Positions 7,943-29,567 of a stretch of 35,986 nucleotides of DNA are shown here, piece after piece. A program made the translations under genes and the position numbers. Within the stretch, counting starts at the first letter, position 1. Every line of letters begins with the position of its first letter. Below the pieces are notes generated by a model that did no database searches, had not been told where the DNA came from, and saw only the letters and a program-made list of their open reading frames with translations. The stretch is from Treponema sp. (lineage in GTDB: Bacteria; Spirochaetota; Spirochaetia; Treponematales; Treponemataceae). The stretch is taken from positions 1-35,986 of the forward strand of contig NZ_JAILGZ010000073.1 of NCBI RefSeq assembly GCF_024696245.1, written 5' to 3'.

Positions 7943-10900
7943 TTAGAATACGCTTGTACGTATACCAAGTGATACTGTAAACACTTCCTTCTTAGCATCA
8001 TCACTGGCAATATCCGATGGAATAAACCAGATCTGAGGTTCAGTGTAAAGGGACCAGGTCTTAAAGAGCTTTGCATTCGGAATGGTTACCCTAGGGAACT
8101 CAATCTGAACAAGAGCTGCAGAAAGTACCTGTGATACCTTTTCTCCATCTGTAGAAGTAGCACCAGAATCCGTAAAGTAAGAGAAGTTTGCACCTACAGA
8201 AATAGAAGCACTAAGCCAGTCCCAGTCACGGCCAAAGAAGTACCTGAATGGAATATATCCAATCTGAGCAATAATCTTTGCACCGATTACGTTACCACCA
8301 AAGCGCAGGTCTGTATGTGACTGACCAAGCATGTCAGAAACCATATCACGCTGGCTCTGGGTAAACTGACCAAAGTTAGCCTGAATCTTAACTGCATTAT
8401 CGAATGCTGTAAGACCAATACCAACATTGTAAAGGGTTGCTCCCCATACGCTTACATCAAAGTAAAGACCCTGAATAAAGGCTGGTACTTCATAAGCAGC
8501 CTTGTCACCCTTACGAAGTTCAAACTTAACTGACTTAAGGTTTACGTCATCACTGGTAAGTCCCTTAAAGTTAAGCTGCTGGTTGTAATGACCGCCTTCT
8601 CCCGGTGAAATAAGCTTGATTACAGGAGCTGTTCTGTCAATCTGAACAATAGTTCTTGTAATTGCATTTTCTCCGTTGTACATCTCTGCCTTTACAAGCA
8701 TAAAGTGGGTTCCGGCTGCAATATCAAGGTTTTCAATTCTGTAAGACCAGTTACCCCTGTTCTTGCGGGAAACTGCCTTATAAGACTTACCATTGTCAAA
8801 GCTTACGTATACGCCCTTAATCTTTTTACCTTCAAGTTCACGCCTGCGTTCTACAGAAATATTCTTTTTGTCCTTAAGCTCTGCCTTTTCTTCTTCTGTA
8901 AGAATGTAGCCGGCATTACCTGCAAGGAGAGGTCTGTTCTGAGCAAAGTCACCGTAAGTAAAGTCTGCATTATCCAGAGTTACCCATGGACCATTAGGAG
9001 CGTAAACAAAGGTCTGTTCACGGCTTTCGATTACCTTACCATTCTTTGTGTGGGAGATAACCTTATATCTGTAAACACCTGCTGTAAGGGATACTGTCTT
9101 ATCCTTACCCTCTTCGTCTTTAAGAACGTTTCCTTCCTTGTCATAGAGTTTGTAAACAGGGCAGATTCTGAACTTAAAGTAGCCGTTTGGAGTAAGCATA
9201 CTTGTATTCTTTGTAACATTCTTTCCATAAGGGAGGTGTTCTGCAGCGGCAATAATCCTATTGTCAGAATTAAGCTGTCCGCTTCCGTCCTTAAGGGAAA
9301 TCTCTACATACTGAACAGGGTCATCTTCTTCTGAACTTGTTATACCGTAAATGTTGAATTCACCATTAAGATGTTCACCATTAAGAGGGTAAAGAAGTTC
9401 TGCCCTGGCAAGCTGAGTTTTTGAATCCAGCTGAATGTTGCGGCTTACACGGGTTACGTTTCCGGCAGCATCTTTTCCTGTAAGTTCTACGTTATAGAAG
9501 CCGTCATTAAGGGAACGTTCAATATCAATAATTTCAGAAATAATTTCTGAAGGTGTAAGTTCATAGTGAGCAAGGCGTGATGGTACTGTCTTACCTTCAA
9601 GGGAACGTACTGTAATGTAAAGTTCAGTAAGTCCGATGTTGTCTGTTGTCTGTCCTGAGAAGAAGAGGTTCTTAGAAGTCTTACTGTCATCAAGAGGAAG
9701 CTCAAGCCTGAGTTCAGGAGCAGTATTATCAATGTTAATCAAAGATGAATAAAGACCTGTAATTCCATAGCCGTCATATACCTTAAAGAATACTACGTGA
9801 GTTCCGTCCTGAATTACACGGGTATCAAAAGTATAGCTCCAGTTTGTAGTACCTTCTGCATCATTATAAGAAGCACCGTTATCAATAGAAACCTGAACCT
9901 TACTGATTCCGTTTTTATCGCTGGCAGTTCCCCTGAGGGTTACAATACCCTTAACAGTCTTACTGATATCAGGTTCATTCATCCAGCCCTTTGGTTCTTC
10001 AAGAGAAATACGGAACTTGCGGACATCTTCTGAACCACGGATACCGTTACGGTCAACAGAGTAAACACTTACACTATGTTCGTTGTCTGTCATTGAAGAA
10101 AGTGGAACTTCAATTTCGTAGTTATAGCGGAGGTTTGCATCATCAGTTTCTGCAAGAGAAGGATCAGATGATACAAGCTGATAACGGCCACTGTCTATTC
10201 TATAGTAAACACGGCTTGGACCGTCATCATCAGAAACTACACCGGAAATCTTAAAGTCTGTAGTAAGAACCTGATTTTCTTCCGGCAGGTTAATTTCTAC
10301 AACAGGCTTGTCTGATTCAGAGTTAACTTTAAATTCCCAGCTGTAAGATGAATCAGGAATTACAGTTGAGTTTCCGGCTGCATCTGTAAATACAAATGAC
10401 ATCCTGTTATCAATAGGGAATGCTGCTGTTCCTACTTCCATATGTGGCAGTGAAGAATTAAGGGTCTTTAACGGATTATTTCTGTCTGCTACAGGAACTT
10501 CCTTTCCTTCACTGTCTGTAAGTGTTTTTGCCGGAATATCTTCCGGATGAGCATAGATTTCAAATTCTTCTGAACGTGCTCCACCTGGAGAACGATATGT
10601 AATGCTCTTAAGAAGACCAGCTTCTTTTACAAGGAAGCCGATTGTATTTTCACCGTTAACGCTTGTACTTGCTGCATCAGGAAGAATAACCTGAACCTGA
10701 GGAGCAGTTGTATCTTTCTGAACTACAGTATTGCAGTAAGCAATTTTTCCGGAAGTATCTTTTGCACGGAGTGAAAGACCTGCATATCCGTCAGGAATAT
10801 CACTAAGGTCTACTGTAAAGCTGAATTCTCCGCCACCCTTTGGAATAGAAACAGGCTTCCATTCAGCATCTGCATTATCAGAGAGAGTATATTCAAGGGA

Positions 10901-13900
10901 AGAAACACCATTACCATCTGTAACAGAACCGCTTACACGGAATGACTTCTGTACAAAGGCCATATCCTTAGGTCTGTTAAGGGTAATAGTTGGTTTTGAT
11001 GTATCTACAACAAGGGTAACTTCCGGAGAATTATATGCACCACCGGCTTCGTCTGTTACACGGATAGAAACACCCCTGTATGTACCGTCAGAAGTAGCCT
11101 TAAAGAGAACTGTGTTATTAGGACCGGCTTCTGCAGTTAATCCGCGAACATCGCCCCGGACAGAAGCCTTTATGTTCTGGAAAGGAATATTTGCAAATGC
11201 CTTAAGGGCTGCACCGTCATTAAGAACATAAGATGTACCGCTGAGAGTTACACCATCTGTCTCTGACCAGAAAATCTTTGCAGCATTGTTAAGTACTGCA
11301 TGGGTTCTGAGAACAATAATTGTTCCTGTAATTTCTTTCTTTGTACCACCTGCAGTTGTAACAACAGCCTTGAGGGAGTTAATTTTTGCAGGGAGGTTTG
11401 CCAGAGGGAATTCTGCTGAATATTCAGGACCGGTAGAACCAGGAAGAATAGCAGCTGATTTTTCCGAACCGCCGTTAAAGCTGTATGTAACGCCTGTAAC
11501 TGCAGCATTTGAATTTATTTTAATAAGACCCTTATGACCGGCTTCTGCATTTGTTCCCTTTTCAAGAACAATAGACATACCGCTCTTATAAGGAGCACCA
11601 TCGATTTCTGCAAAATGAGCATCGATTTCTACAGGAGCAGAAACAGACAGGCTTTCTGTATAAGAAGGAGCCTTTCCCTTAACTTCTGCATCTGTTGCCT
11701 TTACTTCAAATTTAAGTGAACCGGTGTCGGCCTTAATTTCGTCAGCCTTAACTACCTTAAAGAGGTTGTCACATTCACCCTGGTAAACACAGATTCCGTA
11801 ATAGTTTTCTCCTTTAAGCCAGAAAAGCTTTGGATCTTTTTTAGAAGACTTTTTATCACCGCCAGCTGCAGGAGGATATGGGATTTTTCTTACAAAAACA
11901 GCCTCTGCTGATTTTTTACCTGATGCTGATTCAGCAACAAGTTCAACAACATACATACCGTCAGAAGCAAATTCCTTGTCTGTTGTAAGATTTGTAATTG
12001 AGAACTTACCCCTTCTGTTAAGGTCAACCTTCGTTAATTCAGAAGTTTCAGGATTGCTGATTACAGAAATAAAACCGCTGTCATCAATCTGAACTTTAGC
12101 AGAGAAAATTCTGTAAGAAATACTTACATCTGAATCTGCAGTTACTCCACCACTAATAGAAAGTTTGTCACTCTGGGTAAGGAACTCAAAGGCCCTTCCG
12201 TTTTCAGTGTCATATTTAGAAGTTGAATCAATTGTAATTACAGGAGCCTTTTCATCAGAATAGAAATACATTTCCTGTGAATCGTAGTTTGTCCAGATAT
12301 CTGTTGTAACCCTTACCTTAAACTTAGCACTGGAAGCACCAGGAGCAGCTGTTACCGTAATAACATTTCCGTCAAAGGCTGCACTTACACCCCTTACTGC
12401 AGGAACTGTTGCTACGGAAGAAATCTTTCCGCCGGCAAAATATCCTGTAAGAGGATAGTCAGGATTAATCTTTACTGCACCATTTTCTGCAACAATTGAA
12501 TCTGTAAAGTATACACCTGGTTTTTCTACATTAATCTGAGTAAGGTCAGTTATATTAAGGATTGCATAATGAAGGCTTTCCCTGTCGTAAATATCAGTTG
12601 CCCTGACAGTAACTTTTGAGAAGCCCCATGGAATATCGTCTCCACCTAAAGGAATACTTACGGTAGCTGACTTTGCGTTTTCTCCAACAGTAAGATCCTT
12701 TTTAATGCTGCCGTTTGAGCCCCAGCTTAATTCCCAGTTAACGGCTTTAAGACCACAGCTGGAATTTACCTTTATTTCGTAAGAACCATTTTCTTCCGGA
12801 TTAATCTTCATACCGTCAGTAAATTCCTGAGAAGATTTACCTGAAAGATATTTTGCCCCGGAATAAGTTGGAGCAATTCCCTTAGACTGGAAGGAAACAG
12901 AAGTTTCGTTACCCTTTACACCATATTTATCTACTGCATAGGCTGTAAGGGTATGAGTACCATCGCTTAATGCACCAGGAATCTGTGTATAGAAAACACC
13001 GTTACATTCAACTGTAGATTCATCTTTGCCATCAAGGGAGTAAATAACCTTTACAACACCATCATCGTCTTCTGCAATACCACGAATAAAGAGAAGTCCG
13101 TCTTCTCCGTCTACACCTTCGTTTTCTACAGGATACTTAATGCTTACAAGAGGCTTGTCTGCTTCCTGATCAAGAAGAATAGTACGCTTTTCTGTTACAG
13201 TATTACCCATAATATCTGTAGCGGTAATCTGGAAAGTTTCTGACTTCTTGTTAATCTTACGGGTATCAAGTTCTACAGACCAGTAAGGATTTCCTGGAAT
13301 AAGGCTGTGGTTATCATCTACGTCCTTATATTCTTCCTTAAAGTCATCCCTTGCATAGAAAGCGCCGGAAAGATCACCAAAGCTCCATTCAAGCTTTTTA
13401 ATACCGTTTACTTCACGCTTTTCTACTTCTTTAGTTTCTTCTCCGTCCTTAATCTTTTCTTTTTTGTAACTGCCTAAAGCATAACCGGCAACACTAAAGA
13501 TACCATTCTGAGCTTCCTTTTCCTGTGGAGTAAGAATCTCAATTTTAGGAGGATTGTTCTTTACAAGGAAAAGATATGTAAGCCTTCCTACTGAACCTGC
13601 ACCGTCCCTTGCCTTTAAAAGACACTTGCGGGCACCTTCTTCAAGCTGACGGCTGTCTACTGTAATGGAAAATTCATATACAACAGAAATACCCTGAGCC
13701 TTTAATGATTCATATTCAGCCTTTCTTTCTTCACCCTGGAAATATTTTGATTTTTCAAGTTTTACTTCTTTAAGATCAGCTGCTTCAAGGTCTGCAAACT
13801 TCTTTTCTTCGTTACAGCTATATTCAAGACTCTGTATTCCGTTACCGTCTGTAACATAACCTTCAATCTTAAAGCGGCCGCTCTTCATTGAACCCATTTC

Positions 13901-14695
13901 TGCAGGATTCATTACGTGGATTTCCGGAGTACGGCGGTCAAGCTGCCATGTTACCTTTACAGAATCACCTCTGTCAGAAATAAGAGGATTTTTAATCTTA
14001 CCGTTCTTTTCGTATTCTTCATTTAACTTTGCAAGATCTTCAGAAGCAAGGGCTTCCTTTGCCTTTATACGCTTGTCTTCTATTTCCTTGATTTTTTCTT
14101 CTGAAAAATTATATGGAGGGCCCATAAGGATTTTCTTATCCTTTTCCCAGGCTTCATCAATAGGAGCTGACTTATCAATACCGTAAACTTCTATTGTATG
14201 AGGACCTTCAAGCCATTCAGTTGTATTAAGTTCATAAGACCAGAATTCCCTTCCGTTTGCAGGCTGAGGAATTCCCTTATAAGGACCGTCATCAAAAATA
14301 ATATAAACTACATCAACACCATCATCATCAGTACAGGTACCAACAATATTAAGGTTACCAGGTACACGCATTCCTTCTGAAGGATTTGTAATACCAACTA
14401 CAGGTTTGTCCGACTCTGAGTCTATGTAAATATTATAAGGACCGGCAACAGTAGTGTTTCCAGCCTGGTCTTCTGCTGTAACTACAATGTTGTACTTACC
14501 TTCTTTTTTCTGCTCAAGAGGGAATGTTTTTTCCCAGCTGTTAAGAGTATTACCGTCTTCCTCTTTGTGGGCTTCTCCAGCCTCTACAGAAGAGGGAATA
14601 GTCTGTTCATCTACCTTTGCAGGATTAGGTGCAGCAGAGGACTGTATTCCAATAATTGAGGCACAAAACAATATTATTAAAGCTTTCTTAAACAT
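7943..14695 (-). CDS. Giant Ig-repeat protein with C-terminal outer-membrane barrel-like domain
   Basis: The product is 2250 residues. The ATG follows a GGAGAG ribosome site. Residues 1-22 form a Sec signal peptide with a likely cut near SSA-AP. At least eight Ig/cadherin-like modules follow. Each has the pattern hydrophobic strand, NPxE or xPxE, basic or polar turn, then FxIxGxVxDDDG or VTDGNG and xxYxxD; clear examples begin with VGITNPSEG, VSIKYPVEN, ITLNRPKDM and VEINLPEEN. A Lys/Glu-rich stretch near residues 195-240 could be helical. The last ~190 residues (about 8515-7946) change character to alternating aromatic and small residues, with motifs such as GLYFDVSVWG, GYIPFRYFFG and SISVGANFSYF, and the chain ends in Phe. 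This resembles a small outer-membrane beta-barrel with a terminal aromatic insertion signal. Inferred role: surface-anchored structural protein or adhesin. It is likely related to the Ig lipoprotein at 1-6281. Confidence 0.85.
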   Translation of the reverse strand: MFKKALIILFCASIIGIQSSAAPNPAKVDEQTIPSSVEAGEAHKEEDGNTLNSWEKTFPLEQKKEGKYNIVVTAEDQAGNTTVAGPYNIYIDSESDKPVVGITNPSEGMRVPGNLNIVGTCTDDDGVDVVYIIFDDGPYKGIPQPANGREFWSYELNTTEWLEGPHTIEVYGIDKSAPIDEAWEKDKKILMGPPYNFSEEKIKEIEDKRIKAKEALASEDLAKLNEEYEKNGKIKNPLISDRGDSVKVTWQLDRRTPEIHVMNPAEMGSMKSGRFKIEGYVTDGNGIQSLEYSCNEEKKFADLEAADLKEVKLEKSKYFQGEERKAEYESLKAQGISVVYEFSITVDSRQLEEGARKCLLKARDGAGSVGRLTYLFLVKNNPPKIEILTPQEKEAQNGIFSVAGYALGSYKKEKIKDGEETKEVEKREVNGIKKLEWSFGDLSGAFYARDDFKEEYKDVDDNHSLIPGNPYWSVELDTRKINKKSETFQITATDIMGNTVTEKRTILLDQEADKPLVSIKYPVENEGVDGEDGLLFIRGIAEDDDGVVKVIYSLDGKDESTVECNGVFYTQIPGALSDGTHTLTAYAVDKYGVKGNETSVSFQSKGIAPTYSGAKYLSGKSSQEFTDGMKINPEENGSYEIKVNSSCGLKAVNWELSWGSNGSIKKDLTVGENAKSATVSIPLGGDDIPWGFSKVTVRATDIYDRESLHYAILNITDLTQINVEKPGVYFTDSIVAENGAVKINPDYPLTGYFAGGKISSVATVPAVRGVSAAFDGNVITVTAAPGASSAKFKVRVTTDIWTNYDSQEMYFYSDEKAPVITIDSTSKYDTENGRAFEFLTQSDKLSISGGVTADSDVSISYRIFSAKVQIDDSGFISVISNPETSELTKVDLNRRGKFSITNLTTDKEFASDGMYVVELVAESASGKKSAEAVFVRKIPYPPAAGGDKKSSKKDPKLFWLKGENYYGICVYQGECDNLFKVVKADEIKADTGSLKFEVKATDAEVKGKAPSYTESLSVSAPVEIDAHFAEIDGAPYKSGMSIVLEKGTNAEAGHKGLIKINSNAAVTGVTYSFNGGSEKSAAILPGSTGPEYSAEFPLANLPAKINSLKAVVTTAGGTKKEITGTIIVLRTHAVLNNAAKIFWSETDGVTLSGTSYVLNDGAALKAFANIPFQNIKASVRGDVRGLTAEAGPNNTVLFKATSDGTYRGVSIRVTDEAGGAYNSPEVTLVVDTSKPTITLNRPKDMAFVQKSFRVSGSVTDGNGVSSLEYTLSDNADAEWKPVSIPKGGGEFSFTVDLSDIPDGYAGLSLRAKDTSGKIAYCNTVVQKDTTAPQVQVILPDAASTSVNGENTIGFLVKEAGLLKSITYRSPGGARSEEFEIYAHPEDIPAKTLTDSEGKEVPVADRNNPLKTLNSSLPHMEVGTAAFPIDNRMSFVFTDAAGNSTVIPDSSYSWEFKVNSESDKPVVEINLPEENQVLTTDFKISGVVSDDDGPSRVYYRIDSGRYQLVSSDPSLAETDDANLRYNYEIEVPLSSMTDNEHSVSVYSVDRNGIRGSEDVRKFRISLEEPKGWMNEPDISKTVKGIVTLRGTASDKNGISKVQVSIDNGASYNDAEGTTNWSYTFDTRVIQDGTHVVFFKVYDGYGITGLYSSLINIDNTAPELRLELPLDDSKTSKNLFFSGQTTDNIGLTELYITVRSLEGKTVPSRLAHYELTPSEIISEIIDIERSLNDGFYNVELTGKDAAGNVTRVSRNIQLDSKTQLARAELLYPLNGEHLNGEFNIYGITSSEEDDPVQYVEISLKDGSGQLNSDNRIIAAAEHLPYGKNVTKNTSMLTPNGYFKFRICPVYKLYDKEGNVLKDEEGKDKTVSLTAGVYRYKVISHTKNGKVIESREQTFVYAPNGPWVTLDNADFTYGDFAQNRPLLAGNAGYILTEEEKAELKDKKNISVERRRELEGKKIKGVYVSFDNGKSYKAVSRKNRGNWSYRIENLDIAAGTHFMLVKAEMYNGENAITRTIVQIDRTAPVIKLISPGEGGHYNQQLNFKGLTSDDVNLKSVKFELRKGDKAAYEVPAFIQGLYFDVSVWGATLYNVGIGLTAFDNAVKIQANFGQFTQSQRDMVSDMLGQSHTDLRFGGNVIGAKIIAQIGYIPFRYFFGRDWDWLSASISVGANFSYFTDSGATSTDGEKVSQVLSAALVQIEFPRVTIPNAKLFKTWSLYTEPQIWFIPSDIASDDAKKEVFTVSLGIRTSVF

Positions 14696-20275: not shown

Positions 20276-20304
20276 TTGAAAGAATATCTTTCTAAGTTTA
20301 TTAT
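20276..20304 (+). promoter_or_regulatory. Promoter of the HAD-methyltransferase fusion gene
   Basis: TTGAAA (20276-20281) and TATTAT (20299-20304) are separated by exactly 17 nt. The TTG could be read as an in-frame start codon, but it is better explained as the -35 box. The true ATG is at 20315, 10 nt after the -10 box, giving a leader of only a few nucleotides. Confidence 0.75.
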
Positions 20305-20314
20305 TCCCTTACTT

Positions 20315-21562
20315 ATGACGGAACTTTATATTTTTGACTTTGACGGCGTAATTATTAACTCAGCTGATGACATTGCAGACAGTATCAATGCAGCTTTAAA
20401 ACATTTTACCTACTGGACCCTTGAAGAAAACCAAATAAAGAATCTTATAGAAGATGACCTTAAAAAAACATTAGTAAATTGCCTTCTCCTTTCTACAAAA
20501 AATCATTACAGATGTGACGATGAAGAAAAAACAGAAAGCATATACCAGCAGTTCCTTAAGGAATACAGAAGCAGGGCAACGGACAAGACAAATCTCTATG
20601 CAGGAATAAAGGAACTTCTTAAAGTCCTTAAGAAAAAAAATAAATACACTGCCCTTATGTCATTAAAATGTCCGGAGCTTACAGAAAGAATCCTTAATTA
20701 CTTTGAAATAGATTCTTACTTTGATGTAATCTCTTACTCTAAAAATATAGAAGAGGCAGTAAATCAAATAAATACAAAAACCGGAAGCCACTTTAAATGT
20801 CAGGATGCAATTGTTTTATCTGACTGCCTTCAGGACATAGAAAATGCCAGGGCTGCCGGATGTAAAAGTGTAGCAGTTCGTGGAGGCATGGGTAAAAGGG
20901 AAGAACTTGTAAAGTGCAATGCGGACCTTTGCTTTAGTGTTGCCAGCGAAATAGAAAAATTCATCAGCATACTTTCTGACCCGGCAAGAGAATCAGAAGT
21001 AAAAAACTTTGCCATGAAAAACGAAGTTCCAATTATGCAGGACGAAGGTTCTGACTTTATATGCAGTTACATTAAGGAAAACAATATAAAAAATATTCTG
21101 GAAATAGGTTCTGCCATAGGTTACTCTTCCATGAAGTTTGCACGCCTTAATCCGGACATACATGTTACTACAATAGAAATTGACAAAAGCCGCTATGACA
21201 CTGCAGTAGAAAACTTTAAGAAAAACAATCTTGAGCAGCAGATAAAAATATTTAACGGAGATGCCCTGACCTATCCTATAGAAGGAAAATACGACCTTAT
21301 TTTTATAGATGCTGCAAAGGCCCAGTACATTAAGTTCTTTGAACGCTTTAAAAACAATCTTGCAGATAATGGAGTTATTTTTAGCGACAACCTTTCTTTT
21401 CATGGAATGGTAGAAGATTTGTCACTTACCCATAACTACAGCACCATTAAGCTTGTAAAAAAAATCCGCAAGTACATAGATTTTTTAAAAAACAACGAAG
21501 AGTTTACAACTGAATTTTTTGACTGCGGTGACGGTATTTCCATTTCTAAAAAAAAGAGCTGA
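20315..21562 (+). CDS. HAD-family phosphatase fused to TrmR-type O-methyltransferase
   Basis: The product is 415 residues with two enzyme domains. Residues 1-~215 are a phosphoglycolate-phosphatase-like HAD hydrolase: nucleophile and acid Asp8/Asp10 in FDFDGV, Ser116 in the motif II position, and Asp170/Asp174 in LSDCLQDIENA (motif IV). Residues ~225-413 are a class I, family 3 methyltransferase. They contain NEVPIM, the cofactor loop ILEIGSAIGYSS (261-272), FIDAAKAQY (330-338), SDN (357-359) and the ending GDGISIS. These match TrmR/YrrM, which methylates 5-hydroxyuridine at tRNA position 34 to 5-methoxyuridine. That tRNA role is inferred from family resemblance. The substrate of the phosphatase half is unknown. 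The gene has its own near-leaderless promoter, and a terminator overlaps the stop codon. Confidence 0.88.
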   Translation: MTELYIFDFDGVIINSADDIADSINAALKHFTYWTLEENQIKNLIEDDLKKTLVNCLLLSTKNHYRCDDEEKTESIYQQFLKEYRSRATDKTNLYAGIKELLKVLKKKNKYTALMSLKCPELTERILNYFEIDSYFDVISYSKNIEEAVNQINTKTGSHFKCQDAIVLSDCLQDIENARAAGCKSVAVRGGMGKREELVKCNADLCFSVASEIEKFISILSDPARESEVKNFAMKNEVPIMQDEGSDFICSYIKENNIKNILEIGSAIGYSSMKFARLNPDIHVTTIEIDKSRYDTAVENFKKNNLEQQIKIFNGDALTYPIEGKYDLIFIDAAKAQYIKFFERFKNNLADNGVIFSDNLSFHGMVEDLSLTHNYSTIKLVKKIRKYIDFLKNNEEFTTEFFDCGDGISISKKKS

Positions 21563-21589: not shown

Positions 21590-23740
21590 TTATTTTACTG
21601 TATATTTAACACTGTCTTTTTCTGAACCACAGCTTATTTCTATAAGGTGCTCTCCCCTGGTTAAAGGAAGATTCCATGAAAAAGGCATTTCCTTTTTTGC
21701 TACAGGCTTACCGTCCAGACTAAGAAAGGCTTCCCTTTCCTTACCGCCGGAAGCAATAACCATAAGCTCCTGTACATTCTCTGGAATTCCAGGATCAAAA
21801 ATAAATACAGCTTCATTCTTTGGGAACATAATTTCAAACTCACCGTCTGAAAAAAAGTCAGTTGCATTTATATTTCTTCCATAAGCCCAGTGCTGATATT
21901 CAGAAGGATAGGTAATTTTTATATGTCCATTTTCTAAAGAATGCCAGTTACAGGTCTGCATATTTGGAACTGCTGTTTTAAGCACATATTCCCAGGCTAC
22001 AGAAGGACAGGCTTCAGAAGGAGCAAGTCCGGACAAAGTACAAACCTTTACCTTTTGATATTTTTCTGGTTCTGCAAAAGGATCACATCCATAACGTTCT
22101 GTTAAAGCATCAAGGATTTCCCTTACAACAAGAGCCGGAATACTGCTGCCTGTTTTGCGTACAACAGTTTCTCCGTCAAAGTTTCCCATCCAGACACCGG
22201 CAGTAAATTTACTTGTTGCACCAATGGCTATAATGTTCTGAAACTGATTGGAAGTTCCTGTTTTAAAAATAGAAGGGTAAGGAGTATCAAAAACCTTTGC
22301 ATGACCAAAGCCAAGCTCCCTGGCATTTTTATCACTTAAAATTGAACACATGATTCTGGCAGTATCTTTCTGATATACCTGATGTCCGTTGAACTTTCCA
22401 TCATTCACAAATGTAGAAAAGGCATTTACCATTTCGTAAAGGGTAACTTCACTGGAACCTAAAGCTAAAGAAAGGCCTGTAGACTCTCTTGTTCCCCTAA
22501 GGGATTCAAAACCCAGTTCTTCAAGCTTAGCCATATACCTGTCTACACCCATATGATAAAGAAGGTAAACTGCAGGAACATTTAAGCTTGAAGCAAGAGC
22601 TACCCTGAACCTTACAGGACCATTAAACTGATTGTTAAAATTCTGGGGAACATAAACACCCTTTCCACCAAAATCCTGAGGAATATCCGGTAAAATTGAA
22701 TTAGGCGAAAATCCGTTTTCAAGAGCAAGGGCATAAAGGAAAGGCTTCATGGAACTTCCCGGCTGATTCTTTACCGTTACACCATCAATCTGACCGGAAT
22801 GCTGGTCGTCATAAAAATCACTGTTACCAATCCAGAGCACGGTTTCTCCGGTAATGTTGTTTATAACGTAAGCTGCACCATTATGAATGCGGGCATCCTG
22901 GTAAGTATGTAGCTGGGAATTAATACTTGTAATAACTTTTTTTGCCAGCTTACTGTCTATGGCAAGATGAAGCTCCGGAGGAATTACTTCCTTTCTGCTT
23001 TTATATTCACCAACAAGATGATTTATATAATGAGGAATTTCAAAAGGATATTCATAAAGCTTTGCCGGTTTATAATCCGAAGGCCGCCTTGGGATTTTTG
23101 CAAGTTCCTTTATTTCTTTATCTGTAAGATGCCCTGGAGTAATGCCGTAAAAAGTTCTTGCAGCAGAAGCAGCGCCTTCACACTGATATCCAAAAGGAAC
23201 GTTGTTTATGTAAAGCTCAAGGATTTCGTCTTTAGAAAGATGTTTTTCAAGATGAAGGGCCTTAAAGGCTTCTACTATTTTTTTGCCAACAGTTACCCTT
23301 TCCTTGCGGGGACTGATAATTCTTACCAGCTGCATTGTTATGGTAGAAGCACCACTAACAACTGTTCCGGCTTTTTTATTTTGCATCATGGCCCTGATTA
23401 CAGAAACTGCATCAACACCATTATGAGAATAAAAATTTTTATCTTCCTGTAAAACAAATTCATCAAGAAGTTCTTTAGGGTATTTTTCAAGAGGATAGTA
23501 TTCACGGTGAAGCCCTTCTTCAAGAGCAAGCACCTGCAGAAGTTTTCCGTCCCTGTCAAAAAAACGGGTACTGTACTGCCTGTGCTTAAACTCTTCAAGT
23601 CCAGGATATGGAATCAAATAAAGGGCAAGATTAAAAAGCAGGACTAAGGCAAGGATTCCTCCGGCAATACCAAGAATAATCTTAGCTGCCAGAGGAAGCT
23701 TTACCTTCATCATTTTTTTTATGATGAACTTAATGTTCAT
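21590..23740 (-). CDS. pbpC: Penicillin-binding protein 1C, bifunctional peptidoglycan synthase
   Basis: The product is 716 residues, a membrane-anchored enzyme acting in the periplasm. One transmembrane helix spans about 19-44. The GT51 glycosyltransferase domain follows, with catalytic Glu99 in QEDKNFYSHNG and the GASTITMQLVR motif (130-140). The transpeptidase domain has the SxxK motif at Ser329/Lys332 (GSSMKPF), SLN at 385-387 and KTGTS from 493. The last ~90 residues form the PBP1C-type C-terminal beta domain, with its usual DGKP and RGEH elements. Family knowledge: PBP1C is thought to assist wall repair and is often encoded next to a bacterial alpha-2-macroglobulin. Here the ATG overlaps the macroglobulin stop codon by 4 nt (ATGA), which supports coupled translation and a shared task. 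Confidence 0.95.
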   Translation of the reverse strand: MNIKFIIKKMMKVKLPLAAKIILGIAGGILALVLLFNLALYLIPYPGLEEFKHRQYSTRFFDRDGKLLQVLALEEGLHREYYPLEKYPKELLDEFVLQEDKNFYSHNGVDAVSVIRAMMQNKKAGTVVSGASTITMQLVRIISPRKERVTVGKKIVEAFKALHLEKHLSKDEILELYINNVPFGYQCEGAASAARTFYGITPGHLTDKEIKELAKIPRRPSDYKPAKLYEYPFEIPHYINHLVGEYKSRKEVIPPELHLAIDSKLAKKVITSINSQLHTYQDARIHNGAAYVINNITGETVLWIGNSDFYDDQHSGQIDGVTVKNQPGSSMKPFLYALALENGFSPNSILPDIPQDFGGKGVYVPQNFNNQFNGPVRFRVALASSLNVPAVYLLYHMGVDRYMAKLEELGFESLRGTRESTGLSLALGSSEVTLYEMVNAFSTFVNDGKFNGHQVYQKDTARIMCSILSDKNARELGFGHAKVFDTPYPSIFKTGTSNQFQNIIAIGATSKFTAGVWMGNFDGETVVRKTGSSIPALVVREILDALTERYGCDPFAEPEKYQKVKVCTLSGLAPSEACPSVAWEYVLKTAVPNMQTCNWHSLENGHIKITYPSEYQHWAYGRNINATDFFSDGEFEIMFPKNEAVFIFDPGIPENVQELMVIASGGKEREAFLSLDGKPVAKKEMPFSWNLPLTRGEHLIEISCGSEKDSVKYTVK

Positions 23741-26700
23741 TTAGAAATATTCCAAACCTGACCTTGTGAACGGCCAAAGATTTCTTCTTCGTACATACAT
23801 TCAGCTGTAATACATGGAGTGTTATACAAGCCTGATCTTGTTGCACGGAACATAAACTCTACAGTTGTTTCTGTTGGATGGAAGTAATCCCAGAAATACT
23901 GAACTTCTGCATCAAATATTTCTCTGTTAGAAAGCCAGTTGTATGAGTACCAGTAGTAATAATAATCATCATCATAATCACTATTACTATTATAACTTCC
24001 ACGGTTATTATCATACTGACTTCCTGTTGTTGCAAATGCAGCATTAAGGATTTCACATCCTGCAGGTACAGGAACACGCATAGCTACATATTCAAGATTA
24101 TCTGTAGAAGAAATATAAACCTTTTCCTTGTAAACATTTCCTTCGATAAGGTTGTTATCTGTAACAAGTTCACCAGTCTTAACATCATAAATTTCTGAGT
24201 AAACACAGATACCTTCATCACGGGCTTCCTGCTTTTCCGGTGGAATAGCATACTTCATGGAAATTGTGTAATAAAGGTTTCCGGTACCAGACTTTCTGAA
24301 TTCAACTGGAACTTCTACATTACTCTCGCTTGAAATATCACCAAACTTAATGCGGCGGTCTACAGCCTTAGCTCCAAGACCTTCAAATTCTCCGGAAAGA
24401 ACAGGTTTGTCGTTAAGATATGCAACTGCCTTAAAGTCAAGGTTCTTAAGGTTACGTCCAAGGATATACTGATTAACGGCTACCATTACGCGAACAGTAG
24501 ACATTGTAGAAGACCAGTATCCCCTTGCAGACTGAAGCTTAAGAAGTTCAAAAATAAGATGATCATTTACATCATCATCAGGACTAATCTTAGAGAAGAG
24601 CTGGAGACAGTAACTGTAGTCATCTGTTGAATCTCCCCACCAGTAGTCATAATCGTTGCTGTCAATATCTGCACCCCTTGATGTAAATGAAATTCTGTTG
24701 CGGATTTTCTTTACAAGAGCATCACGCTTTTTATTCATACCAAGCTGGTCATAAGTAAGGGCAAGAGTTGCCATTGAACCTGCATAGCCTTCTATATCCT
24801 TTTCAAGTTTAGCAAGGTTAGAAGCAGATGGTTTCTTTCCAAGAAGACTGGCAACATAGTACTGATAAACTGCAGTCATTGAACTGTAGTAATCATTATC
24901 CATACTGTCATTTGCTACAGAAATAAGGTAAGAGCCAAGTTTTTCAAGATCAATATTCTTTGTAAACCTAATACCCTTCTGCTGAGCAATGGCAAGAATT
25001 TCACCAATGCGGGCAGATACATAAGCATTAGGTTCGGTTCCATTAGGCCAGTAAGGGAAACCACCATTCCACTTCTGAACATTTTCCCATGAATTGATTT
25101 CATTTACTGCTACTTCAATTGGATCTGCAACCTCTGACTTAAGGTCAAATACATCTATGTAGTCACCAAATACAATCAGAGGGAATACCTTACTTGATCT
25201 CTGTTCCATACAACCGTAAGGATAACGGAATACGTAGTCTACAGCTTCATGAAGCATACCAAGTCTTGTAGGATCAAGCTGTACATAGAATGAACCAACG
25301 CCATCTTCTGCAGCAGGAACCTTTATCATTTCTTTTTTAGCCTTCTTACCGTCACCTGTAACAGAACCAATAGAAGTTACTGTTTCAAAGATATAAGGCT
25401 TTTCGATTTCGAGAGGGAGATAAACCTTTTCGTTTACCTGCTTACTCTGAACTGTCAGCTCTACAGTAATCCATCCGTTCTTAATTGCATGAACGTTGAA
25501 CATAAGAGGCTGGGTTGTACCAGACTTAACTGAAATTGTCTTTGTAAGTGAATCAATTACTTCTGCACGACCAGGAGCCTTTAAGATTCCGTTGGCAGAT
25601 TTTGTTGAACCAGTCTTTTCTGTACCTTCATAAAGGGCAATTGTAACATCTACATCTTCGTCAATTTCTGAGATATTTGAAATAACTGCACCAACTTCAC
25701 TTACGTCATCAAGACGAAGCTTTCTTGGAAGTACATGACGTACAGAAATAGGATTTGCAACATCCATCTGAGATTCAACAAGGGCAAAATTATCACCTGT
25801 TACACCAACTGCTGTAATTCTGTAGGCAGTAAGGGTATCTGGCAATGTGAATGTACAGCTTGCATTACCATCAGCATCAGTAATGATTGATGGTTCAAAG
25901 AGAGCTGTAGGATCAAAGTTTTTGCGCTCTGAGAATTTTCCGTCAGCATCACCACCAACAAGGTTTTTAACTTCATAAGTTACAGGGTCCATAAGATATT
26001 CACGGCTGTCTCCACCATAAACACAAAGAGGGAACCTTGATGGATTATAGAAGAACTGAACTGGATCAGGTACATGGTAATTAATCAGGTCGATAACACC
26101 ACGGTCAACTGCCATCAAAGTAATATCTGCATTAGCAAGAGCTTTTCCATTCTTACTTGCATGAACTTTAATAGTAGCCTTTTCTCCAGGAAGATAAGAC
26201 TTCTTATCTGTTGTAACTTCAATATCGAATGTACGTGATTCCGGACTAACCATAAGGGTTGTTACACCAAAGTAAGGCTTTGGCTTGTCGATATCCGGAG
26301 TATTGTAATCATTCTGAGGCTGACCTTTACGAACAGAGAATGATGACAGGGTAACATAAATTACTGGAACGTAAGAGTCTTTAATTTCTACATCAATAAC
26401 AGATGAACTTTCTTTAAGTTCGATTACTTTTTCTTCAAGAATGCCTTCACGCTCAACAGTAAGCATGTAGCGTCCCTTTTCAAGAGGACTCTGAAGAAGA
26501 ATCTGTGCTGTATCTCCAACAGAATATTCATTCTTATCAGGAGTCATAGAAAGCTGCTGGGAATTATCAGACCAGTACCACCAGTACCAGTCACCACCAG
26601 TTACATAGAAACTGCGTTCTGTAATTACAGAATTTCCGGCAGAGTCTGTAGAAGAAATGCGGAGGGTATAATAACCGCCACGTGGAGGAACAACAGTAAA

Positions 26701-29529
26701 TTCTACAGGTGCTGCAGACAAAGTAAGATCTTCATATTTATCCAGATCTGTTTCATAGTATTTTTCCCAGCGGGTATTAATCTGACCATTCCATGCAACC
26801 TGCTGAACTTCCTTCCAGGATTCACGGAGAAGTTCAATATGAAGGGCCTTTGATTTCTTTGCAGGAAGTTCTCCGGCAGAAGGAACAGCTCCATCAGGAG
26901 TAACACACACATAATTAAAGCGTACTTCTGTACCCTTCTTAGGGAATCCACCTGACTTAAGACGACCAAGACCAAGATAGTAACGGGACGGATGAACAAT
27001 TACGGAACTTGCTGCTGTAATAGCCTGATTACCGGAATCCATTACTTCAATTTCTGCACGATAGTTATAAGGTGCACCAAGGATTTTTTCTCCACCAGTT
27101 TTCTGAGAAAGGCTGGCTTTACCATCAGCACCAAGAACACCAGAATCAGTGTTAAGGGAAGTACGTCCGTCATAATACTGATGTGTACCAAAAGTCATAC
27201 CTTCGTATTTCTTTCCGGCAGGACGATAATTGATAGCTTCCCTTGACCAGCTTGCATTATAAGAAGCACCACTCATGCTTCCGCCACCAAGATACTGGGC
27301 AAGAACATCTACGTTTACATCATCACCCCTGTAATAGGTAATTGCAGGAGTAGATGCCTTTACTTCAAACCTGAGGCGTTCAAAATACTGAACCTGAATT
27401 GTACAGTTTGTATAATCACCACCATTATAATAAGTAATGGTATAGCGGCCAGGTTCAATATCATCAGGAAGAACAAAAGTTCCTGAAGTACAACCATTGT
27501 TATCAAGTGTACCGGACTTTTCATAATATACAGAATCACTGTAGTAATAATCTTCCTTTAATTTAATTTCAAAATCACGTTTACTTGTATCTGGTACGGA
27601 ATATTTACCCTTATAAAGTTCACGATCAATTACTTTATATGAAACCTTTTCACCAGGCTTATAAAGTCCGCGGTCTGTAAACATAAAGGTAACTTTTCTT
27701 TTACTTGCTGAATAAGAAGGTGAATAAGAGTCAACACCATAACGCCACATACTTGTTGTATTACCATCAAAAATCATGTGGTCATCATCAGTTGTTACCT
27801 CAAAGTAAATTGTGTGACTGTAATCAATATCATAGTTGCGTTCAAAATCAATATGAACAAAACCATTAGCATCTGTAACACCGGAACCAATGATATCATC
27901 TCTATAACTATATGGGTCCTTAATAATAGAATCACCTGAATTCCAGCGGTAAATATAATAAGCATTAACTTTTGCCTTCTTAACAGGCTCACCTGTCTTA
28001 AGGCTTGTAACCATTACTGCTGCTGAATCATTACCAAATCTTACACTTGCACCAAGGTCTGTAACCTGCACAAGAAGATTATTTGAAGTAGAAGACTGAC
28101 GGGTTTCATAACCTTCGTTCCACCAGTCATAGTAACGGTAAATGTATTTCATATCAGCATTAAACTGAACCAGTCCGCGATATTCCTTTCCGACTTTTGT
28201 GAGGTATTTAGAAAGATCTACAACTTCAATAACAGTTGTATCGTCAGGAATTTTTTCAGGGTCAAGTTCAACCTGTGCGCTTTTTTCTTTAGTAAGGGCT
28301 TTTCCTTTATTATCCAGAACACCACTTACCCTATATTCTGAACCAGACTGAATATTCTGATGTTCAAAAGCAATTTTTGGAAGGAACTGGGATTCAAGCA
28401 TCTTATTGCCTGAATCTTTAAATGATGCATAACTTCTTGCACTTGGGATTTCAATTGTCTTTGTGTAATTTGAACCAAGACTTCTTCCGTAAACATCTTT
28501 AAGACCACCCTTGATTGTAAGGGTGTAAGAAGAATTGTATTTTACAGGGAAGTTAGAAAGAGTAAGGCGGGCACCACTAAGATCTACGTTATCTTTTTTT
28601 ACCTTAAAGCCTTCAAGATCTGTAGTAATGTATTTTGCAATTTCATCTTCTGTACCTGCTTTAAGAGGTGTATTAAAAATTACTACAACAGGATTTGAAT
28701 AACCATATGAATAAGTATCGTAATAACAATTTTCTATATTAAATTCCGGAATGGTATAAAAACTAAGTTCCTGATCAGAATCCCTTGTTGAAATACAGCC
28801 AACATCAGCCGAAGCACCTTCTTCAAGAACAACCCTTACACTTGCTCCTTCCTCAAGATCTTTCTTAAGGGTAAGTACAACTTCGTATTCTGTATTAGCC
28901 GCCTTAATATCATAAGGAATGCGGTAACCGCTGCTTGTTACATAAATCCACTGTTTTACATGGTCTACGTTTACTTTTGTATTAAAAAGCACACCTACAT
29001 CTTTAGCCTGCTCAAGTGGTACTTTATAGTTATCAACATACTTTCCCTGAGAAACTTCTGTATAACCAGGATGAACAGCTAACATCTTTAATCTCTCAGA
29101 AAAGAAATAGAATGTTGTCTCATCCGTAAGCTTTTCACCAGTTATTGATTTTAAATCCTCTTTTACTTTAACTGTATAAAGCTTCTGGGGAATTACTTCA
29201 TCAGTAGAAATAAATGAAAGAGTACTTGTTGTTGTCCACTTCCAGTATCCGTTAAGTGCAGGTTCAATACTTGCATAATCACAAGTTGCTGTCTGCTGGC
29301 CTAAGGCTGTAAGTGCAACTACAGGTTTAGTAAAATGAATCTGGACTTTAGGATATTTAATATCCGAATTCATTTCACCCTGAGGGGTAACTAAAGCAAC
29401 TTTAAAGCTTACCTCAGAAGCTTTTGAACTTTTACTTTTTTTACTACCGGCTGCAAAAACTGTTACAGTCGCCGCACACAGGAGCAAAAGCCCCACAACA
29501 GCTGAAAGCTTACGTTTTTTTATAGTCAT
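23737..29529 (-). CDS. Bacterial alpha-2-macroglobulin (MG2/thioester protein)
   Basis: The product is 1930 residues from the ATG at 29529, which has a TGAGGT ribosome site; an in-frame TTG at 29541 lies within that site. The signal peptide ends near VFA-AG (residue 26). A Cys at 18 precedes that cut but has Leu at -1, so lipidation is doubtful. The order is typical of the family: N-terminal macroglobulin-like beta domains, a Tyr-rich central region, an extended region with TAYRITAVGV, then the thioester domain with GCMEQ (Cys1440) and helical repeats, and a C-terminal receptor-binding-like beta domain. The family traps attacking proteases: bait cleavage exposes the thioester, which binds the protease covalently. 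The thioester residues are all present. The protein is likely periplasmic and coupled to pbpC, pairing protease defence with wall repair. Confidence 0.93.
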   Translation of the reverse strand: MTIKKRKLSAVVGLLLLCAATVTVFAAGSKKSKSSKASEVSFKVALVTPQGEMNSDIKYPKVQIHFTKPVVALTALGQQTATCDYASIEPALNGYWKWTTTSTLSFISTDEVIPQKLYTVKVKEDLKSITGEKLTDETTFYFFSERLKMLAVHPGYTEVSQGKYVDNYKVPLEQAKDVGVLFNTKVNVDHVKQWIYVTSSGYRIPYDIKAANTEYEVVLTLKKDLEEGASVRVVLEEGASADVGCISTRDSDQELSFYTIPEFNIENCYYDTYSYGYSNPVVVIFNTPLKAGTEDEIAKYITTDLEGFKVKKDNVDLSGARLTLSNFPVKYNSSYTLTIKGGLKDVYGRSLGSNYTKTIEIPSARSYASFKDSGNKMLESQFLPKIAFEHQNIQSGSEYRVSGVLDNKGKALTKEKSAQVELDPEKIPDDTTVIEVVDLSKYLTKVGKEYRGLVQFNADMKYIYRYYDWWNEGYETRQSSTSNNLLVQVTDLGASVRFGNDSAAVMVTSLKTGEPVKKAKVNAYYIYRWNSGDSIIKDPYSYRDDIIGSGVTDANGFVHIDFERNYDIDYSHTIYFEVTTDDDHMIFDGNTTSMWRYGVDSYSPSYSASKRKVTFMFTDRGLYKPGEKVSYKVIDRELYKGKYSVPDTSKRDFEIKLKEDYYYSDSVYYEKSGTLDNNGCTSGTFVLPDDIEPGRYTITYYNGGDYTNCTIQVQYFERLRFEVKASTPAITYYRGDDVNVDVLAQYLGGGSMSGASYNASWSREAINYRPAGKKYEGMTFGTHQYYDGRTSLNTDSGVLGADGKASLSQKTGGEKILGAPYNYRAEIEVMDSGNQAITAASSVIVHPSRYYLGLGRLKSGGFPKKGTEVRFNYVCVTPDGAVPSAGELPAKKSKALHIELLRESWKEVQQVAWNGQINTRWEKYYETDLDKYEDLTLSAAPVEFTVVPPRGGYYTLRISSTDSAGNSVITERSFYVTGGDWYWWYWSDNSQQLSMTPDKNEYSVGDTAQILLQSPLEKGRYMLTVEREGILEEKVIELKESSSVIDVEIKDSYVPVIYVTLSSFSVRKGQPQNDYNTPDIDKPKPYFGVTTLMVSPESRTFDIEVTTDKKSYLPGEKATIKVHASKNGKALANADITLMAVDRGVIDLINYHVPDPVQFFYNPSRFPLCVYGGDSREYLMDPVTYEVKNLVGGDADGKFSERKNFDPTALFEPSIITDADGNASCTFTLPDTLTAYRITAVGVTGDNFALVESQMDVANPISVRHVLPRKLRLDDVSEVGAVISNISEIDEDVDVTIALYEGTEKTGSTKSANGILKAPGRAEVIDSLTKTISVKSGTTQPLMFNVHAIKNGWITVELTVQSKQVNEKVYLPLEIEKPYIFETVTSIGSVTGDGKKAKKEMIKVPAAEDGVGSFYVQLDPTRLGMLHEAVDYVFRYPYGCMEQRSSKVFPLIVFGDYIDVFDLKSEVADPIEVAVNEINSWENVQKWNGGFPYWPNGTEPNAYVSARIGEILAIAQQKGIRFTKNIDLEKLGSYLISVANDSMDNDYYSSMTAVYQYYVASLLGKKPSASNLAKLEKDIEGYAGSMATLALTYDQLGMNKKRDALVKKIRNRISFTSRGADIDSNDYDYWWGDSTDDYSYCLQLFSKISPDDDVNDHLIFELLKLQSARGYWSSTMSTVRVMVAVNQYILGRNLKNLDFKAVAYLNDKPVLSGEFEGLGAKAVDRRIKFGDISSESNVEVPVEFRKSGTGNLYYTISMKYAIPPEKQEARDEGICVYSEIYDVKTGELVTDNNLIEGNVYKEKVYISSTDNLEYVAMRVPVPAGCEILNAAFATTGSQYDNNRGSYNSNSDYDDDYYYYWYSYNWLSNREIFDAEVQYFWDYFHPTETTVEFMFRATRSGLYNTPCITAECMYEEEIFGRSQGQVWNISK

Positions 29530-29567
29530 AAAATACCTCAATTAAAGTGTAATATTTTTATTCGATA

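What the first reader, a model, noticed from the sequence alone, without database searches (positions are those of the whole stretch)
20315..21562. Fusion of a HAD phosphatase to a TrmR-like tRNA methyltransferase
One uninterrupted frame joins a complete HAD domain (Asp8/Asp10, Asp170/Asp174) to a complete family 3 methyltransferase with TrmR-type motifs. Both active sites look intact. I know of no described role for a phosphatase attached to wobble-uridine methylation. The pairing could couple a phosphorylated intermediate or metabolite control to tRNA modification, or be a chance fusion kept for expression.
Basis: partly seen in the sequence, partly recalled or inferred. Interest (0 to 1): 0.62.

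Follow-up and report, generated by a model that had tools for sequence, protein, structure and literature searches.

The report
Phosphatase-like domain fused to tRNA methyltransferase
In a group of gut Treponema species, the enzyme that probably methylates the wobble base of tRNA is joined to a phosphatase-like domain; the fusion is real and inherited across about 22 species, but in this species the phosphatase half looks damaged, and in related species the same tRNA enzyme has been joined to at least six other kinds of protein.

Summary
The frame is real: 20315-21562 (+) encodes 415 aa with a HAD_2 domain (residues 5-188) and an O-methyltransferase family 3 domain (228-413). Twenty of the 200 genomes held for the genus (gut treponemes, including the isolate T. 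berlinense) carry the full fusion, plus one cut by a contig end and one degenerate copy; all fit a single origin. The methyltransferase is TrmR-like by closest structures, metal site, a TrhP-like hydroxylase in the genome, and the ruvX-mltG-trmR-U32-U32 gene order of its Bacilli relatives. The claim of two intact active sites fails for HAD: the window protein and its nearest relative lack the stretch with the motif III Lys-Pro and the Gly of the cap loop, and a third species lost the nucleophile and the cap. Eighteen relatives keep all HAD motifs. The junction segment (202-221) is the best conserved. Unexpectedly, TrmR in this family is also fused C-terminally to kinase-like, GNAT, aminoacyl-tRNA-editing, transglutaminase-like, Cof-type HAD and unknown domains: about 35% of TrmR frames in the genus exceed 300 aa, against about 1% for rsmG. 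Best reading: a fusion-prone TrmR whose HAD domain need not be catalytic.

The parts
20315..21562 (+). Whole fusion gene, 415 aa, stop included (a TTG start at 20276 is also open, but homologues align from the ATG at 20315)
20327..20878 (+). HAD_2 (phosphoglycolate-phosphatase-like) domain, residues 5-188
   Evidence: Pfam E 9.3e-25; NCBIfam phosphoglycolate phosphatase 93.5 bits against a cut-off of 225
20336..20344 (+). HAD motif I, Asp8-x-Asp10, intact
   Evidence: invariant in 20 fusions
20450..20455 (+). Cap loop, residues 46-47: Glu-Asp where 18 relatives have Gly-Asp or Gly-Asn
20738..20749 (+). Site of the deletion that removes HAD motif III (KPxP); Lys143 lies here
   Evidence: alignment of 20 fusions
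20822..20836 (+). HAD motif IV, Asp170 and Asp174 present; the preceding Gly is Ser
20918..20977 (+). Junction segment, residues 202-221, including the last HAD helix; the most conserved part of the fusion
   Evidence: mean entropy 0.47 bit against 1.22 (HAD core) and 0.71 (methyltransferase); helix 213-221 in the model
20996..21553 (+). TrmR-like O-methyltransferase domain, residues 228-413
   Evidence: Pfam Methyltransf_3 E 6.9e-22; nearest structures are TrmR enzymes
21095..21130 (+). SAM-binding motif ILEIGSAIGYSS, residues 261-272
   Evidence: conserved in alignments
21308..21391 (+). Stretch holding the metal-type residues D332, D358 and N359 of the methyltransferase
   Evidence: invariant in alignments

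Best explanation
A TrmR-type tRNA (5-hydroxyuridine-34) O-methyltransferase that was fused once, in an ancestor within this Treponema genus, to a phosphoglycolate-phosphatase-like HAD domain. Shown: both domains, inheritance in about 22 species compatible with one origin, and loss of HAD catalytic elements in the window lineage and in L111. Inferred: a TrhP-like U32 protein makes ho5U34 and the fused TrmR domain methylates it to mo5U34 using AdoMet and a divalent metal. The HAD domain is probably a working phosphatase in most of these species. In this species it is probably catalytically impaired and kept mainly as a folded N-terminal module, whose last helix takes the place of the N-terminal helix that stand-alone Treponema TrmR proteins lack. 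The fusion is one case of a tendency of this gene to fuse with unrelated partners.
For: Fusion in 20 full-length copies of 200 genus genomes, plus one contig-cut and one degenerate; one clade not rejected. TrmR: nearest structures 3ntv, 5zw3/5zw4 and 8k1f; Bacilli homologues in the order ruvX-mltG-MTase-U32-U32 in 23 of 25 loci, as in the characterised yrrM-yrrN-yrrO operon; TrhP-like U32 protein in the genome, no TrhO or CmoB found in the genus. HAD decay. Conserved junction. Serial fusion: with the rsmG control.
Against: HAD dN/dS in the window lineage is still about 0.1 (rough, saturated dS), so some function of the domain is kept. Eighteen of 20 fusions keep all HAD motifs, which argues that catalysis matters in most species. 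Lys143 could replace the lost Lys. pLDDT at the junction is only 58-73. The TrhP-like protein is below the curated TrhP cut-off. No biochemical data.
Confidence: 0.5

Rival explanations
1. Functional coupling: the HAD domain is an active phosphatase on a small metabolite (for example phosphoglycolate or a nucleotide) that regulates or feeds wobble-uridine methylation, so the fusion is a truly bifunctional enzyme.
For: 18 of 20 fusions keep all HAD motifs; L088 matches solved phosphoglycolate phosphatases at E 6e-26; the fusion is conserved over deep divergence, 48-74% identity.
Against: HAD catalytic elements lost at least twice with the fusion retained; known TrmR chemistry needs no phosphatase; no stand-alone HAD of this kind was found next to solo TrmR genes; six other partner types occur on the same TrmR.
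Confidence: 0.2
2. Neutral fusion: the two domains work independently (or the HAD half is dispensable), and the joint frame is kept only for co-expression or by chance in a gene prone to fusion.
For: At least seven partner types fused to the same TrmR in one family; HAD evolves faster than the methyltransferase (64% against 84% identity between L001 and L005) and is decaying in two lineages; no widely conserved gene neighbours of the fusion.
Against: The junction segment is the most conserved part of the whole protein, also kept in L111; no reversal to separate genes was seen in the fusion clade; HAD still under purifying selection.
Confidence: 0.25
3. The methyltransferase acts on a small molecule (catechol type) rather than on tRNA, and the HAD domain acts in the same small-molecule pathway.
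For: The Pfam family (Methyltransf_3) covers both kinds, and the HAD relatives are small-molecule phosphatases.
Against: The best sequence and fold matches are TrmR enzymes, including a tRNA-bound one, well ahead of small-molecule O-methyltransferases; Bacilli homologues sit in a trmR-trhP-type operon.
Confidence: 0.05

Closest known systems
TrmR (YrrM), tRNA 5-hydroxyuridine-34 O-methyltransferase (B. subtilis 5zw3/5zw4; F. nucleatum 8k1f)
   Same: Fold, SAM motif and metal-type residues; 37% identity to 5zw4 in the fold alignment; Bacilli homologues share the trmR-U32-U32 gene order
   Different: Known TrmR is a single-domain protein; here a HAD domain replaces the N-terminus, and the gene is not next to U32 genes in the window
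Phosphoglycolate-phosphatase-like HAD (HAD_2; 2nyv, 2yy6, 2hsz)
   Same: HAD core with cap, motifs I and IV; motif-intact fusions such as L088 match 2nyv at E 6e-26
   Different: Below the NCBIfam phosphoglycolate phosphatase cut-off; the window copy lacks the motif III KPxP segment and the cap-loop Gly
TrhO-TrmR fusions of oomycetes and a diatom (reported in PMC6599085)
   Same: TrmR fused to another domain in one gene
   Different: There the partner makes the TrmR substrate ho5U34; here the partner is a HAD domain with no known step in the pathway
MTase with C-terminal Cof-type HAD in L107-L110
   Same: Same TrmR family, also joined to a HAD-superfamily domain
   Different: A different HAD subfamily (Hydrolase_3), at the other end of the protein, in a separate clade

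Membership tests
TrmR | O-methyltransferase family 3 fold closest to TrmR structures | tested here: met
TrmR | SAM motif and metal-type residues | tested here: met
   invariant in alignments
TrmR | ho5U34-forming enzyme available (TrhP or TrhO) | tested here: inconclusive
   TrhP-like U32 protein E 1.2e-95 but 321 bits against a cut-off of 534; no TrhO in the genus
TrmR | trmR-trhP gene neighbourhood | tested here: inconclusive
   Present in 23 of 25 Bacilli homologue loci, absent next to the window gene
TrmR | Methylation of ho5U34 in tRNA | not testable with these tools
   needs tRNA mass spectrometry or enzyme assay
HAD phosphatase (phosphoglycolate phosphatase type) | Motif I DxD and motif IV Asp pair | tested here: met
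HAD phosphatase (phosphoglycolate phosphatase type) | Motif III Lys in the KPxP context | tested here: not met
   segment deleted in the window protein and L005, present in 18 other fusions; Lys143 as a substitute not testable here
HAD phosphatase (phosphoglycolate phosphatase type) | Cap-loop Gly | tested here: not met
   Glu46 in the window, Asp in L005, Gly in 18 others
Phosphoglycolate phosphatase (NCBIfam equivalog) | Score above the curated cut-off | tested here: not met
   93.5 bits against 225

The most novel reading that the evidence does not exclude
TrmR in gut treponemes is a fusion hub: wobble-uridine methylation has been physically tied, at least seven times, to different enzymes (two kinds of HAD, kinase-like, GNAT, aminoacyl-tRNA editing, transglutaminase-like), so that tRNA decoding is coupled to metabolism or quality control, with the partner's fold rather than its catalysis sometimes being enough.
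Probability: 0.15. Interest if true: 0.75.

Novelty: new variant of a known kind. Interest (0 to 1): 0.5.

Why it matters
Fusions are usually read as evidence of functional linkage. Here one small tRNA methyltransferase has fused repeatedly with unrelated partners in one bacterial family, while the similar-sized rsmG in the same genomes almost never has. That makes a natural test of whether repeated fusion signals function or tolerance. It also gives an example in which a fused enzyme domain has lost catalytic elements but is kept, and it warns against inferring a phosphatase step in tRNA modification from architecture alone.

Tried and rejected
A chance open frame or assembly artefact: rejected, since about 22 genomes including the isolate T. 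berlinense carry it. A second functional TrmR paralogue in this genome (contig C25): rejected as probable contamination, because the tsaD on that contig is only 76% identical in DNA to that of the nearest relative G001, while the second tsaD, on C134, is 86-88% identical. HAD remnants upstream of solo TrmR genes (L122, L123, L095 and others): none seen. A stand-alone HAD or other partner gene next to solo TrmR as the pre-fusion state: none found in the fetched flanks. TrhO or CmoB in the genus: none. Papers describing a HAD-TrmR fusion: no hit in the searches made.

Full report
Observation. The frame at 20315-21562 (+) is open and encodes 415 aa. Pfam finds HAD_2 (residues 5-188, E 9e-25) and Methyltransf_3 (228-413, E 7e-22). 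The gene sits alone between two opposite-strand genes, an alpha/beta-hydrolase-like gene and a penicillin-binding-protein-1C-like gene (these two names are my reading of the translations, not a search result).

Distribution. All 200 genomes held for the genus were searched. 128 have a match at E 1e-30. Twenty carry the full HAD-methyltransferase fusion (the window included; the others at 48-74% identity), one more is cut by a contig end (G212), and one (G230, locus L111) has a degenerate HAD half. The genome-contig scan names carriers as Treponema, including the cultured T. berlinense ATCC BAA-909. In the family sample (195 genomes, 20 genera) and the phylum sample (149 genomes) full-length fusions occurred only in this genus. 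On the methyltransferase-domain tree the fusions without L111 form one clade (support 0.91). Holding all 22 together, L111 included, gave a higher likelihood than the free quick tree (p-AU 0.86), so one origin fits.

Second copy in this genome. A solo methyltransferase on contig C25 (66% identical) follows tsaD. G000 has two tsaD copies while the three relatives checked have one. The copy on C134 is 86-88% identical in DNA to that of the nearest relative G001, the C25 copy 76%. C25 is therefore probably contamination (the assembly is listed at 4.83%), and the fusion appears to be the only such methyltransferase of this species.

The methyltransferase is TrmR-like. The closest solved structures by sequence and by fold are S. 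aureus 3ntv, B. subtilis TrmR (5zw3 and the tRNA-bound 5zw4) and F. nucleatum TrmR 8k1f (model pLDDT 85.7, pTM 0.64). The SAM motif and metal-type residues are invariant. Homologues in gut Bacilli lie in the order ruvX, mltG, methyltransferase, U32, U32 in 23 of 25 loci (identities). This resembles the B. subtilis operon of yrrM, yrrN and yrrO in which TrmR, TrhP1 and TrhP2 were characterised (PMC6599085). The window's genome has a 492-aa TrhP-like U32 protein (E 1e-95, though below the curated cut-off) and a longer U32 protein. U32 proteins occur in 198 of 200 genus genomes, while TrhO and CmoB models find nothing in the genus. This fits the route U to ho5U to mo5U, but it is inference until tRNA is measured.

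The HAD domain. In 18 of 20 full-length fusions all HAD motifs are present, and L088 matches solved phosphoglycolate phosphatases at E 6e-26. The window protein and its nearest relative L005 share a deletion of 9-16 residues (depending on the relative compared) that takes out the motif III Lys-Pro segment. They also share a cap-loop Gly changed to Glu or Asp, TNK changed to SLK, and the Gly before Asp170 changed to Ser. L111 independently has Gly in place of the nucleophile Asp8 and no cap. HAD catalytic elements have therefore been lost at least twice while the fusion stayed. The HAD half still evolves under constraint (dN/dS about 0.1 for L001/L005, with saturated dS, so only rough) and faster than the methyltransferase (64% against 84% identity). 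Lys143, shared with L005, might replace the motif III Lys; this is open.

The junction. Residues 202-221, which end in the last HAD helix, are the most conserved stretch of the whole protein (mean entropy 0.47 bit, against 1.22 for the HAD core and 0.71 for the methyltransferase), and the pattern persists in L111. The alignment with B. subtilis TrmR begins inside this helix, at residue 214, whereas the solo Treponema TrmR proteins that I looked at begin about 15 residues before the VPIM motif and so lack it. I infer that the HAD's last helix takes the place of TrmR's N-terminal helix. The model has a helix there but with modest confidence (pLDDT 58-73).

TrmR as a serial fusion partner. Many other TrmR genes in the family run on into a different C-terminal domain: GNAT (Pfam E 3e-13, with a divergent subgroup grouped by BLAST), aminoacyl-tRNA editing (5e-21), transglutaminase core (1e-7), Cof-type HAD Hydrolase_3 (1e-57), APH-like kinase (7e-5, exactly at the cut-off) and one unidentified domain (L114). 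About 46 of 132 TrmR matches in the genus are fused, nearly all with frames over 300 aa (hand count, the contig-cut G212 included), against 2 of about 160 listed for rsmG, of similar length, in the same genomes (hand count). Parsimony needs nine or ten changes, with seven partner types. Only one of these types, aminoacyl-tRNA editing, has an obvious link to tRNA.

Interpretation. The fusion is genuine and old within the genus. The simplest account is that this TrmR gene readily fuses with other genes, that the HAD fusion was fixed once, and that the junction became part of the methyltransferase fold. HAD catalysis is probably retained in most species and probably impaired in this one. A bifunctional enzyme with a phosphorylated intermediate is not excluded for the motif-intact species but has no positive evidence. 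My literature searches found no description of this architecture; a TrhO-TrmR fusion in oomycetes and a diatom is reported (PMC6599085).

Limits. Most genomes are draft metagenome assemblies. dN/dS values are Nei-Gojobori on saturated pairs. The tree rests on about 190 columns, with weak deep support and a long L111 branch. That one polypeptide is made, rather than two from an internal start, is inferred from the open frame and was not tested.

Noticed in passing
L107, L108, L109, L110 (G264, G238, G235, G260): TrmR fused at its C-terminus to a Cof-type HAD (Hydrolase_3, E 1e-57): a second, separate joining of TrmR to the HAD superfamily, at the other end.
   Followed up: partly
L039, L118, L119; L034-L036, L038; L025, L041, L042, L112, L113; L040, L043, L044; L114: TrmR fused C-terminally to aminoacyl-tRNA editing, GNAT, APH-like, transglutaminase-like and one unidentified domain.
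   Followed up: partly
L111:3427-4509 (-), genome G230: A HAD-TrmR fusion whose HAD half has lost the nucleophile Asp and the whole cap, yet keeps the junction helix and an intact methyltransferase.
   Followed up: yes
L125 (G000:C25) and L193/L194 (G000:C134): The window's assembly holds two tsaD copies, one of them broken by an inversion-like repeat at C134; C25 probably comes from another Treponema species.
   Followed up: partly
window 21590-29541 (-): A penicillin-binding-protein-1C-like gene overlapping a 1934-aa alpha-2-macroglobulin-like gene, a pairing known from other bacteria (named from my reading of the translation, not searched).
   Followed up: no
window 7943-14695 (-): A 2250-aa predicted secreted protein that looks made of repeated Ig-like segments.
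   Followed up: no
genus-wide: About a third of near-complete genomes in the genus (28 of 85) have no TrmR match at E 1e-30, although U32 (TrhP/RlhA-type) proteins are near universal, so the fate of ho5U34 there is unclear.
   Followed up: no
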